Positions 29,494-37,335 of a stretch of 64,000 nucleotides of DNA are shown one piece after another. The stretch lies in the NCBI RefSeq assembly GCF_000626635.1, contig NZ_CP007451.1, positions 1,240,001 through 1,304,000 on the forward strand. Reading direction: 5' to 3'. The DNA comes from Draconibacterium orientale. Its GTDB lineage: Bacteria; Bacteroidota; Bacteroidia; Bacteroidales; Prolixibacteraceae. The position numbers and the translations under genes are program-made. Within the stretch, counting starts at the first letter, position 1, and every line of letters begins with the position of its first letter. Under the pieces are notes generated by a model. The model was not told the origin of the DNA, searched no databases, and saw nothing but the letters and a program-made list of their open reading frames with translations.

Positions 29494-29555
29494 CGTCATT
29501 CCGAACTTGTTTCGGAATCTGTTTTAAAAGATGCTGAAACAAGTTCAGCATGACG
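29494..29555. repeat. Paired-hairpin intergenic repeat, copy 1
   Basis: Two hairpins in tandem: ATTCCGAA/TTCGGAAT with loop CTTGT, and ATGCTGAA/TTCAGCAT with loop ACAAG. The whole is bounded by CGTC and GACG, so the halves are also near reverse complements of each other. A second copy lies at 36048-36127. It sits in the actB-actC gap, inside an operon. Confidence 0.75.
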
Positions 29556-34664: not shown

Positions 34665-36008
34665 ATGAACAACACATTACTGATTTTAAAACAAGAATAC
34701 CTGAAACGGGTAAAAAAGAAATCGTTCATCATATTAACCATCCTAATGCCGTTTTTAATAGCCGGCGTTTACGGACTGGTCATCTATTTCTCGATAAAAG
34801 ACGATACTGAAGAACGCACCATCGCGGTGTACGATGCTACCAATTTATTTCTTGGCGAATTCAGCGAAGAAGGAACAACCAGCTACCATTTTATTCCAAA
34901 AGAAGAATTTACGGAATTGAAAACCAACCTGAAAGGCAGTGGTTATTATGGCCTTCTGTATATTCCATCCGATATTTATTCGAACAACCAGGCGCAGCTT
35001 TTCTCCGAGAAACAGTTGCCGTTTGAATTGACCGAACAAATTGAGCGCAAACTCAGCCGTTTTATCGAAAACGACAAGCGCCAAAAAGTAATTGCCGATT
35101 CGGGCATCCCCGATTTGGAAGAGCGCCTGAGCAAAACACGCACCAGCGTAAACCTTAGCACGCTAAAAGTATCGCAATCGGGCGAAACAAAGAAAAGTTC
35201 GTCGGTAGTAGCTTTTATTGCCAGTTACGCCATGGGGCTGCTCATATATTTCTTTGTATTTATGTACGGAGCCATGGTTATGCGCAGCGTAATGGAAGAA
35301 AAGAAAAGCCGCATTATCGAGGTAATTATTTCATCGGTAAAACCCAGCCAGCTAATGGCCGGTAAAATTATAGGTACCGCATTGGTTGGCCTCACGCAGG
35401 TTGCCATTTGGCTTGGGTTAGGAGGTATTGGACTGATAGTGGTACAAAGTTTCTTTTTCTCGCCCGAAACAGCACAGCAAATGAGCCAAAGTATTATGGA
35501 ATCGCAGGGGCAAATGAACCCGGCAGCCATGCAAACAGCGCAGTCGAACCAGGTTATGGAAGTGATGGAAATGATCGGCAACCTGAACATTCCACTCATT
35601 TTGTTTTCCTTTGTGTTCTATTTTCTGGCCGGTTATTTATTGTACAGCGCTTTATTGGGTGCTGTTGGTGCCGCTGTCGATAACGACGAAGACTCCCAAC
35701 AAATGGTATTCCCGGTAACTTTCCCGCTTATCCTTTCAATTATGCTGCTCTTCCCTATTGCCAAAAATCCTGAAGGTCCGCTGGCATTCTGGTGCTCTAT
35801 AATACCATTTACCTCACCGGTGGCCATGATGGCTCGTGTACCTTACGACCTGCCCATTTGGGAGCTTTTACTTTCAATGGGATTACTTGTGCTTACAACC
35901 ATCGTATGCATTATGGCAGCTGCAAAAATTTATCGCATCGGGTTGCTGATGTATGGTAAAAAGGTAAATATTAAAGAGCTGATTAAGTGGCTTCGGTACA
36001 AAGGCTAG
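34665..36008 (+). CDS. ABC transporter permease (NatB-like)
   Basis: A 447-residue ABC-2 type permease with one N-terminal helix (IILTILMPFLIAGVYGLVIYF, in part), a large extracytoplasmic domain (about 60-180) and five or six C-terminal helices. The conserved MEEKKSRIIEVIISSVKPSQ and LMAGKIIGTALVGLTQVAIW are typical of NatB/YhaP-type permeases. I start at the ATG at 34665 (MNNTLLILKQEYLKRVKKKS), not the in-frame upstream codon within the ATPase gene's end. It works with the preceding ATPase. Confidence 0.9.
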   Translation: MNNTLLILKQEYLKRVKKKSFIILTILMPFLIAGVYGLVIYFSIKDDTEERTIAVYDATNLFLGEFSEEGTTSYHFIPKEEFTELKTNLKGSGYYGLLYIPSDIYSNNQAQLFSEKQLPFELTEQIERKLSRFIENDKRQKVIADSGIPDLEERLSKTRTSVNLSTLKVSQSGETKKSSSVVAFIASYAMGLLIYFFVFMYGAMVMRSVMEEKKSRIIEVIISSVKPSQLMAGKIIGTALVGLTQVAIWLGLGGIGLIVVQSFFFSPETAQQMSQSIMESQGQMNPAAMQTAQSNQVMEVMEMIGNLNIPLILFSFVFYFLAGYLLYSALLGAVGAAVDNDEDSQQMVFPVTFPLILSIMLLFPIAKNPEGPLAFWCSIIPFTSPVAMMARVPYDLPIWELLLSMGLLVLTTIVCIMAAAKIYRIGLLMYGKKVNIKELIKWLRYKG

Positions 36009-36047
36009 TAACGAAAATAATGAGTCGTGCTAAAAAGTTAGCAACAA

Positions 36048-36127
36048 CGTCATTCTGAATTTATTTCAGAATCTATAGAACCTGGTTTCTAATTCTTAAA
36101 AGATCCTGAAACAAGTTCAGGATGACG
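36048..36127. repeat. Paired-hairpin intergenic repeat, copy 2
   Basis: Same plan as 29494-29555: ATTCTGAA/TTCAGAAT with loop TTTAT, a longer spacer, then ATCCTGAA/TTCAGGAT with loop ACAAG, bounded by CGTC and GACG. The stem bases differ from copy 1 but remain paired in each hairpin, so they have covaried. It begins 40 bases after the permease stop. Confidence 0.75.
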
Positions 36128-36247
36128 AAACAAAATCTTTTTTGACAGCCGTACAAATCCCGGTTTTCTTAACAAAGCAGACAAAAACATGATTTTTTTC
36201 ACATCTACTATTTAGAATAAATAAAAATTACATATATTGCGATCATT

Positions 36248-36322
36248 ATGAAAAACACCGGTAACAATATGATGATGTGTTGTTGTTTCCTGAAAAACGG
36301 GAAAGGTGTTGTAGTGTTTTAA
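36248..36322 (+). CDS. Putative Met/Cys leader peptide of cysK
   Basis: A 24-codon ORF (ATG 36248, TAA 36320-36322) whose codons 8-13 are ATG ATG ATG TGT TGT TGT (MMMCCC). It lies between a possible promoter (TATATTG, 36233-36239) and a terminator that precedes cysteine synthase. Three consecutive codons for each sulfur amino acid fit a ribosome-stalling leader. GGGAAAGG just after the Cys codons (36299-36306) can pair with CCTTTCC in the terminator's left arm as an antiterminator. The possible transcription start is close to the ATG, so translation may be nearly leaderless. The function is inferred, not shown. Confidence 0.65.
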   Translation: MKNTGNNMMMCCCFLKNGKGVVVF

Positions 36323-36347
36323 GTTGAGCTAAATTGCATGATTATAC

Positions 36348-36381
36348 AAGGCCTTTCCGTGAACGGAAGGGCCTTTTTTTT
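36348..36381 (+). terminator. Attenuator-type terminator before cysK
   Basis: A 13-bp stem (AAGGCCTTTCCGT with ACGGAAGGGCCTT, one G-T wobble) with a very small loop, followed by eight T. It lies between the Met/Cys leader ORF and the cysK ATG, so it must be read through for cysK expression from the upstream promoter. Its left arm overlaps the bases that can pair with 36299-36306. Confidence 0.85.
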
Positions 36382-36423
36382 GTTTAATGAATAGTTACCG
36401 AAATAACTCAATAATTAAAAAGA

Positions 36424-37335
36424 ATGAAAGCAAAGAACATTTTAGAGACCATTGGCAACACGCCACATGTAAAAATTAACCGCCTCTATCCGGAGGATTA
36501 CGAAGTATGGGTAAAAGTTGAGAAAACAAATCCCGGTGGGAGTATAAAAGACCGTATTGCCCTGGCTATGGTTGAAGATGCCGAGAAGAAAGGGATACTA
36601 AAAGAAGGTTCGGTTATTATTGAACCTACATCGGGAAATACCGGAATCGGATTGGCACTGGTAGCAGCTGTAAAAGGTTATCGTTTAATTCTTACCATGC
36701 CCGAATCAATGTCGTTGGAAAGAAGAAGAGCATTGAAAGTGTTTGGTGCCGAACTGGAGTTAACTCCAAAAGAAAAAGGAATGAAAGGTGCCATTGCCAG
36801 AGCTGAAGAACTGGCCAGCGAGCTGGGTAATGCCTGGATACCTCAACAATTTAACAATCCGGCAAACGTTGCCGTACACCGCGATATTACCGCACAGGAA
36901 ATTTTGAAGGATTTCCCCGAAGGTTTCGATTACCTGATTACCGGCGTTGGTACCGGAGGTCACATTACGGGCGTTGCCGAGGTTTTGAAAGCAAAATTTC
37001 CAAACCTGAAAGTTTTTGCTGTTGAACCGGATTCAAGCCCGGTAATTGGCGGAAAAGATCCCGGTCCGCATGCAATTCAGGGAATTGGTGCCGGTTTTAT
37101 TCCGAACAACCTGAATACAGAACTTCTTGACGGAACAGTAGAAATCAGTAAAGACGAAGCTTTCGAGTATGCACAAAAAGCTGCACGCGAAGAAGGTTTG
37201 TTTGTTGGTATTTCGTCGGGAGCATCGTTGGCAGCCGTTGCCAAAAAGATAAAAGAACTTCCGAAAGGATCGCGGATTCTTACGTTCTCGTACGACCACG
37301 GCGAACGCTACTTATCAATTGAAGGTTTGTATTAA
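36424..37335 (+). CDS. cysK: Cysteine synthase (O-acetylserine sulfhydrylase)
   Basis: A 303-residue PLP enzyme making cysteine from O-acetylserine and sulfide. The PLP lysine is K42 in NPGGSIKDR. The substrate loop is [12 protein letters not shown] (about 67-78), the phosphate-binding [10 protein letters not shown] is near 175-184, and SSGAS lies near the C-terminus. Length is typical. CysK and CysM types cannot be separated with certainty. The upstream leader ORF and terminator suggest control by Cys/Met supply. A terminator follows. Confidence 0.95.

What the first reader, a model, noticed from the sequence alone, without database searches (positions are those of the whole stretch)
36228..36423. 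Putative Met/Cys leader-peptide attenuator controlling cysteine synthase
A 24-codon ORF with ATG ATG ATG TGT TGT TGT (36269-36286) lies between a promoter-like element and a strong terminator (36348-36381), directly before cysK. GGGAAAGG at 36299-36306 can pair with CCTTTCC at 36352-36358 and so compete with the terminator stem. A ribosome stalled on the Cys codons would leave GGGAAAGG free (antitermination). One reaching the stop at 36322 would cover it (termination). This is the logic of classical attenuation, but sensing both sulfur amino acids with a run of six codons. Polycysteine leader ORFs are known in mycobacteria (leaderless cysteine-responsive attenuators). I know of no described case in Bacteroidota.
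Basis: partly seen in the sequence, partly recalled or inferred. Interest (0 to 1): 0.85.

Follow-up and report, generated by a model that had tools for sequence, protein, structure and literature searches.

The report
Cysteine-sensing attenuator ahead of cysK
In front of the cysteine synthase gene of a Draconibacterium-like bacterium lies a conserved stretch with a tiny reading frame rich in cysteine codons followed by a predicted transcription terminator; it likely works as a cysteine gauge that would let the gene be copied only when cysteine runs short, and the same genome carries a second such element before its sulfite reductase genes.

Summary
Comparative data support a ribosome-mediated transcription attenuator. 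A poly-Cys ORF precedes 31 of 32 cysK loci of the window's relatives, with a called terminator after 30 of the 31. The antiterminator pairing (36300-36307 with 36351-36358) co-varies: 0 of 20,000 partner swaps pair as well, and 36 of 37 peptides pair better than the mean of synonymous recodings. Cysteine is the constant signal: MMMCCC is kept in only 17 of 31. Met is still about six-fold enriched, so dual sulfur sensing stays open. The element is one of a set: Cys leaders also precede cysJI in this genome and, in relatives, OsmC/second cysK, carbonic anhydrase or cysE-cysK, though the leader is patchy across the phylum. Transcription, translation and any response to cysteine are untested. Leader-peptide attenuation is a known kind; my nine paper searches found no described Cys case in Bacteroidota.

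The parts
36211..36240 (+). promoter-like stretch; -7-like box TATATTGC at 36233-36240, last base 7 nt before the leader ATG
   Evidence: sequence; conserved position in relatives; the generic scan is uninformative; start site not mapped
36248..36322 (+). leader ORF, MKNTGNNMMMCCCFLKNGKGVVVF
   Evidence: counterpart with adjacent Cys codons in 31 of 32 cysK loci of the own group
36278..36286 (+). regulatory Cys codons TGT TGT TGT (preceded by three Met codons 36269-36277)
   Evidence: Cys kept through 13 tract patterns in 34 sequences, 83 TGT and 21 TGC
36254..36310 (+). predicted self-fold of the ORF: P1 36254-36259/36305-36310, P2 36262-36270/36277-36285, P3 36286-36292/36298-36304 (the '1:2' state)
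   Evidence: P1-type pairing 24 of 24 representatives better than the synonymous mean, 0 of 20,000 swaps as good; P3 alone weak
36300..36313 (+). antiterminator strand ('2'): 36300-36307 and 36309-36313
36345..36358 (+). partner of the antiterminator strand ('3'); 36351-36358 and 36345-36349, overlaps the terminator 5' arm
36348..36381 (+). predicted intrinsic terminator ('3:4'): stem 36348-36359/36364-36375, T run to 36381
36424..37335 (+). cysK, cysteine synthase A

Best explanation
The leader before cysK is likely a ribosome-mediated transcription attenuator that would sense the supply of charged cysteine tRNA through a run of cysteine codons. What the sequence shows: a leader ORF with three Cys codons, a terminator-like hairpin between the ORF and cysK, and a strand inside the ORF that can pair either back into the ORF or with the terminator's 5' arm, both pairings conserved. 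Inferred steps: (1) with cysteine plentiful the ribosome runs through the Cys codons to the stop at 36320-36322 and covers the antiterminator strand, the terminator forms and transcription ends about 135 nt in. (2) With cysteine short the ribosome halts on the Cys codons; this breaks P1-P3 but leaves the antiterminator strand, 13 nt past the last Cys codon, free to pair with 36345-36358 before the terminator's 3' arm is made, and RNA polymerase reads into cysK. (3) With no ribosome, P1-P3 hide the strand and termination is the default. Similar Cys leaders would put other sulfur genes under the same signal.
For: Poly-Cys ORF upstream of 31 of 32 cysK loci in the own group; called terminator after 30 of the 31, and 20-36 nt after the stop codon in the 41-leader set (one, L131, at 19). 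Peptides diverge, the Cys tract stays with synonymous TGT/TGC changes. Antiterminator helix of 5 or more stacked pairs in 38 of 41 leaders; better than the synonymous mean in 36 of 37 peptides, mean z -2.0; own partners against swapped partners 0 of 20,000 (29 representatives). P1-type pairing 24 of 24 better than the synonymous mean, swaps 0 of 20,000. Antiterminator strand 9-23 nt after the last Cys codon in 34 leaders, just past a stalled ribosome's edge (footprint recalled). Downstream genes fit the signal: cysK, cysJI, second cysK, cysE-like genes.
Against: No transcript, translation or cysteine response is shown. L032 has no leader and L040 keeps only a promoter-like box. Outside the own group the leader is patchy: 4 of 40 upstream regions in a phylum sample. 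Antiterminator stability reaches the terminator's in only 20 of 41, and the full-length fold from the stalled position usually prefers the terminator, so the switch must work by timing. L052, L057 and L108 miss the 5-pair helix and L044 fails the synonymous test. P3 alone is weak (24 of 34, mean z -0.76). One terminator covariation measure (pairs with a double change) was reached by 82 of 500 shuffles. The sequences are related, so permutation counts are not probabilities.
Confidence: 0.88

Rival explanations
1. The attenuator senses both sulfur amino acids: slow translation of Met as well as Cys codons triggers antitermination (as Thr and Ile codons do in the thr leader, recalled). A sub-case of the best explanation, so the odds overlap.
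For: Met is 39 of 260 residues up to the end of the Cys tract in 22 cysK leaders against 2.4% in long ORFs of the window, and 48 of 249 (one of them a start Met left in by mistake) in 8 cysJI leaders. Sulfide made by CysJI could serve both amino acids (general knowledge).
Against: MMMCCC is kept in 17 of 31 only; L024 and L025 have no Met beyond the start. A SAM riboswitch elsewhere in the genome offers a separate methionine-side sensor.
Confidence: 0.3
2. The ORF controls cysK by another route (translation coupling or Rho), as suggested for mycobacterial cysteine leaders, and the hairpin is incidental.
For: Cys leaders without conserved terminators exist in Actinobacteria, with Rho proposed (PMC1262725, passages).
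Against: Terminator hairpin called after 30 of 31 leaders and both alternative pairings co-vary; cysK starts about 100 nt after the leader stop, with the hairpin between.
Confidence: 0.05
3. The ORF makes a functional small Cys-rich peptide (for example metal or redox binding) and its RNA simply ends at its own terminator.
For: CCC motif conserved.
Against: The peptide outside the Cys tract is not conserved between clades, and codon choice serves RNA pairing beyond the peptide.
Confidence: 0.04
4. The hairpin is only the terminator of the upstream ABC-transporter gene (ends 36008) and the ORF is a chance ORF.
For: It lies downstream of that gene on the same strand.
Against: 340 bp and a positionally conserved promoter-like box lie between; ORF, spacing and pairings are conserved.
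Confidence: 0.02

Closest known systems
Classical leader-peptide attenuators of amino acid operons (E. coli trp, his, thr, ilv; recalled)
   Same: Tandem codons for the pathway's product, intrinsic terminator, competing antiterminator, 1:2 pairing that hides the antiterminator strand
   Different: Cysteine as signal; host phylum that starts translation without Shine-Dalgarno pairing; antiterminator strand inside the ORF; ORF likely near-leaderless
uORFC-8-2 motif before cysS, Rhodobacterales (PMC8632094, passages)
   Same: uORF with tandem Cys codons in a stem, terminator-like U run, predicted ribosome-mediated attenuation
   Different: Controls cysteinyl-tRNA synthetase, two Cys codons, Alphaproteobacteria; no sequence relation tested here
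Mycobacterial polycysteine leaderless short ORFs (Canestrari 2020; title seen in a reference list, paper not held) and actinobacterial cys leaders (PMC1262725, passages)
   Same: Runs of Cys codons in a short leader ORF before cysteine genes; leaderless start there, likely near-leaderless here
   Different: PMC1262725 reports no conserved terminator hairpin there; here one is called after 30 of 31 leaders
Leader-peptide attenuation reported for amino acid operons in Flavobacterium psychrophilum (PMC9723704, passages)
   Same: Same phylum, same general mechanism, from transcriptome data
   Different: The passages seen name no cysteine gene; its supplementary table could not be read here

Membership tests
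Ribosome-mediated transcription attenuator (leader peptide) | short ORF with tandem codons for the amino acid made by the downstream gene | tested here: met
   CCC before cysK; 31 of 32 relatives
Ribosome-mediated transcription attenuator (leader peptide) | intrinsic terminator between leader ORF and structural gene | tested here: met
   predicted hairpin plus T run; called after 30 of 31
Ribosome-mediated transcription attenuator (leader peptide) | mutually exclusive antiterminator, conserved | tested here: met
Ribosome-mediated transcription attenuator (leader peptide) | 1:2 pairing that hides the antiterminator strand | tested here: met
   P3 alone weak
Ribosome-mediated transcription attenuator (leader peptide) | leader is translated and read-through depends on the amino acid | not testable with these tools
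   no expression data
Mycobacterial-type polycysteine leaderless leader | AUG at the 5' end of the mRNA | tested here: inconclusive
   -7-like box ends 7 nt before ATG; start site unmapped
Mycobacterial-type polycysteine leaderless leader | no conserved terminator hairpin (as PMC1262725 reports) | tested here: not met
   hairpin present and conserved
uORFC-8-2 (cysS leader) | located upstream of cysS | tested here: not met
   downstream gene is cysK
Rfam riboswitch or T-box | match at a family's gathering score | tested here: not met
   0 matches in the window among 4227 families

The most novel reading that the evidence does not exclude
Prolixibacteraceae run sulfur assimilation (cysK, cysJI with siroheme genes, OsmC/second cysK, carbonic anhydrase) through one attenuation regulon that reads both cysteine and methionine supply, on a modular RNA chassis (ORF self-fold, antiterminator strand, terminator) whose sensor codons are swapped: Cys/Met before sulfur operons, Ile/Leu/Val before ilvD.
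Probability: 0.3. Interest if true: 0.78.

Novelty: new member of a known kind. Interest (0 to 1): 0.6.

Why it matters
In the papers searched here, control of cysteine synthesis in Bacteroidota has no described RNA switch. A conserved cysteine gauge used on several sulfur operons would give these bacteria a cysteine regulon that needs no dedicated protein regulator, and a family of natural leaders in which ribosome-controlled attenuation can be studied where ribosomes start without Shine-Dalgarno pairing. The like layout of the cysteine and branched-chain leaders makes the idea of a reusable chassis directly testable by codon swaps.

Tried and rejected
Met as the primary signal: rejected, the Met run is not conserved. 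Rfam riboswitch or T-box: no match. A leader common to all Bacteroidota cysK genes: not supported. In a phylum sample 4 of 40 upstream regions (39 genomes) had a Cys ORF plus called terminator and 0 of 40 on the reverse strand; the same pattern for ten other residues gave at most 2 of 40 on the forward strand (Lys 2, Tyr 1) and 1 on the reverse (Asn). Of 8 regions before Bacteroides-type cysK copies (48-55% identity), 2 (L253, L259) list CC-containing ORFs; terminators were not scanned there and I saw none by eye near the L253 ORF. The sigma-70 promoter scan was uninformative. Model R1 has many weak hits (56 at E <= 10 in the own genome; 52 of 61 genomes at E <= 0.01). Of 40 hit regions that I fetched in relatives, 16 were cysJI-type Cys leaders, 5 OsmC-type, 1 carbonic anhydrase, 1 cysK, 3 ilvD, 2 look like thiM (name recalled) and 12 showed no poly-Cys leader. 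Literature: nine searches listed no paper on a cysteine attenuator in Bacteroidota; most subscription papers and all supplements were out of reach.

Choices before counts: one ORF taken as chance (MNFLKTFQHYCCFVI in L020/L055) and duplicate sequences were dropped before the 41-leader set. Representatives (29; 34; 22 for the cysK Met count, 8 for cysJI, 34 for codons and promoters; 24) were hand-picked for diversity. L027 and L049 have the ORF and a terminator by eye but failed the automatic terminator call and are not in the 41.

Full report
WHAT IS THERE. The window lies in a 5.13-Mb single-contig genome (window = G000:C1:1240001-1304000). Its CysK is 97% identical to those of Draconibacterium mangrovi and D. 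sediminis, family Prolixibacteraceae, order Marinilabiliales, Bacteroidota. The gene at 36424-37335 is cysteine synthase A (TIGR01139). Between the upstream ABC-transporter gene (ends 36008) and cysK lie, in order, a promoter-like stretch, the 24-codon leader ORF and a strong predicted terminator.

CONSERVATION. Among 37 genomes of the window's own group (36 'same genus' plus own), 32 gave a cysK locus with readable upstream sequence (30, two more fetched); in the other five no cysK of this type was found, though G001 shows the leader at a contig end (L192). In 31 of the 32 an ORF with adjacent Cys codons begins 157-314 nt before cysK; the exception is L032. A terminator was called automatically after 30 of the 31 ORFs (not L027). 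The peptide changes a great deal (MTIIMYHTYMCCCSEISGKVLS, MINALYTTLMCCCPGNREGIIM, MKNTKINTCMCCCFLNVREGIFRG) but the Cys tract stays. It is written in 13 patterns over 34 sequences with 83 TGT and 21 TGC, so the amino acid and not the DNA word is kept. MMMCCC is found in 17 of the 31. Among 80 named loci from a public genome set, 25 have a Cys ORF plus called terminator within up to 1,500 nt upstream: Draconibacterium, Maribellus, Mariniphaga, Gaoshiqia, Sunxiuqinia and Prolixibacter, two Saprospiraceae MAGs, other Bacteroidota and four Ignavibacteria-labelled MAGs. In L064, L075, L078, L098, L245 and L261 the leader precedes a 255-278 aa ORF. L064, L098 and L261 match cysE models (TIGR01172 below its cut-off in all three; L098 exceeds the cut-off of the related NF041874) and L078 shows hexapeptide repeats; L075 and L245 were not searched. 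In an even phylum sample the leader is patchy: 4 of 40 cysK upstream regions, 0 of 40 on the reverse strand.

THE SWITCH. In the window 36300-36307 (GGAAAGGT) pairs with 36351-36358, extended by 36309-36313 with 36345-36349 (-21.9 kcal/mol, z -4.36). The terminator stem 36348-36359/36364-36375 has -19.7 kcal/mol. Over 41 non-redundant leaders with terminators, an antiterminator helix of 5 or more stacked pairs forms in 38 (misses L052, L057, L108); shuffling the leader part matched the real helix length in a median 2% (mean 10%) of shuffles. Against synonymous recodings of the same peptide, real pairing is better than the mean in 36 of 37 (mean z -2.0; exception L044). Own partners beat swapped partners: 0 of 20,000 permutations over 29 representatives (sum -395.6 against a mean of -320.5, sd 11.5). 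In the terminator 97.1% of cells pair and 5 of 11 pairs change on both sides; cells with a double change (40) exceed all 500 shuffles, but the count of such pairs alone was reached by 82 of 500. Clade forms include GGGAAAGG/CCTTTCC, GGGAAGG/CCTTCCC and GGAAAG/CTTTCC. The rows are related, so these counts are not probabilities.

A THIRD STATE. The whole-leader fold shows the ORF folded on itself: P1 36254-36259/36305-36310, P2 36262-36270/36277-36285 holding Cys codons, P3 36286-36292/36298-36304. P3 and P1 together hide the antiterminator strand. Pairing of codons before the Cys tract with codons after it was better than the synonymous mean in 24 of 24 representatives (mean z -1.81), and 0 of 20,000 swaps were as good. 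P3-type hairpins alone are weak (24 of 34 below the synonymous mean, mean z -0.76). This is the 1:2, 2:3, 3:4 set of classical attenuators (recalled).

HOW IT WOULD WORK (inferred). The antiterminator strand starts 9-23 nt after the last Cys codon in 34 leaders, just outside the footprint of a ribosome halted there (footprint size recalled). Such a ribosome would break P1-P3 and free the strand; a ribosome at the stop codon would cover it. The antiterminator is complete before the terminator's 3' arm is made, so it can win by timing. It must: with all RNA present the terminator fold is usually the minimum (by eye L025 and L043 are exceptions), and the antiterminator is at least as stable in only 20 of 41. 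The -7-like box ends 7 nt before the ATG here; the script put such a box 7-9 nt before the ATG in 17 of 34 leaders, three of them perfect TAnnTTTG (L022, L024, L051), and by eye 9 more have it at 4-7 nt. A near-leaderless mRNA is therefore likely but unmapped. Leaderless mRNAs are 5.5% of those examined in F. psychrophilum (PMC9723704, passages).

A SET OF LEADERS. A covariance model of the cysK leader (R1) found a second site in this genome, G000:C1:3020103-3020213 (E 1.3e-4): MVNSFSKITMMEMTCMTCMMCMCCNGIVVQRN plus a terminator, before genes that include a siroheme-type dehydrogenase (PF13241), cysJ and cysI (equivalogs above cut-off) and a tetrapyrrole methylase. At least 16 relatives have its counterpart; 5 have a third type before an OsmC-like gene, followed by a second cysK in L209, and one lies before carbonic anhydrase. 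The fold of each of these 23 (17+5+1) shows, by eye, an antiterminator against the terminator 5' arm. A second cysK copy in G031 also has a CCCC leader directly upstream (L131). The ilvD gene of this genome is preceded by MKVLSINIIVLLVVILGNTEKGH with the same layout, GAGAAAGG against CCTTTCTC and a terminator; three relatives show the like.

CYSTEINE OR BOTH. Met makes up 39 of 260 residues up to the end of the Cys tract in 22 cysK leaders against 2.4% in long ORFs of the window, and 48 of 249 in 8 cysJI leaders, one of these being a start Met left in by mistake. But Met is absent beyond the start in L024 and L025, and a SAM riboswitch elsewhere in the genome, before a 387-aa ORF that resembles homocysteine synthesis proteins (recalled, not searched), offers another sensor on the methionine side. 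Cysteine is the supported signal; methionine is open.

LITERATURE. Cysteine leader peptides were predicted in Actinobacteria without conserved terminators (PMC1262725, passages) and before cysS in Rhodobacterales with one (PMC8632094, passages). The mycobacterial paper was not held. Leader-peptide attenuation in Bacteroidota is reported in general terms (PMC9723704; PMC7366714; passages). PMC2965389 (passages) shows no Bacteroidota case. Nine searches listed no cysteine case in Bacteroidota.

VERDICT. An attenuator by anatomy and evolution (0.88), sensing cysteine; a new member of a known kind, with some variant features and a multi-operon reach.

Noticed in passing
L137 (G000:C1:4040577-4040688, minus strand); L188, L202, L206: ilvD genes are preceded by Ile/Leu/Val-rich leader ORFs (own genome MKVLSINIIVLLVVILGNTEKGH) with the same antiterminator/terminator layout as the cysteine leader: a branched-chain attenuator on a like chassis.
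   Followed up: partly
L172 around base 200-260 and cysJI-type loci such as L190, L201, L208: A palindrome of the type TGTGACAAAAGTCACA (Crp/Fnr-like by recall) sits between a TACATTTG-like box and the leader ORF of the cysJI-type leaders, hinting at a second control layer.
   Followed up: no
L263 (G000:C1:1609503-1609613, plus strand): The own genome has one SAM riboswitch match (RF00162, 66.2 bits), upstream of a 387-aa ORF that resembles homocysteine biosynthesis proteins (name recalled).
   Followed up: partly
window 36112-36127, 29540-29555, 29494-29509: CAAGTTCAGGATGACG, between the ABC-transporter gene and the cysK promoter, recurs in the window with up to 2 mismatches (3 matches, 0.02 expected); perhaps a dispersed repeat. 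No inverted repeat was reported at 36000-36240.
   Followed up: partly
L032 and L040 upstream of cysK: Two cysK loci of relatives lack the leader; L040 (a Mariniphaga MAG) keeps a promoter-like TTATATTGC box but has no Cys ORF with terminator, a possible natural loss.
   Followed up: no
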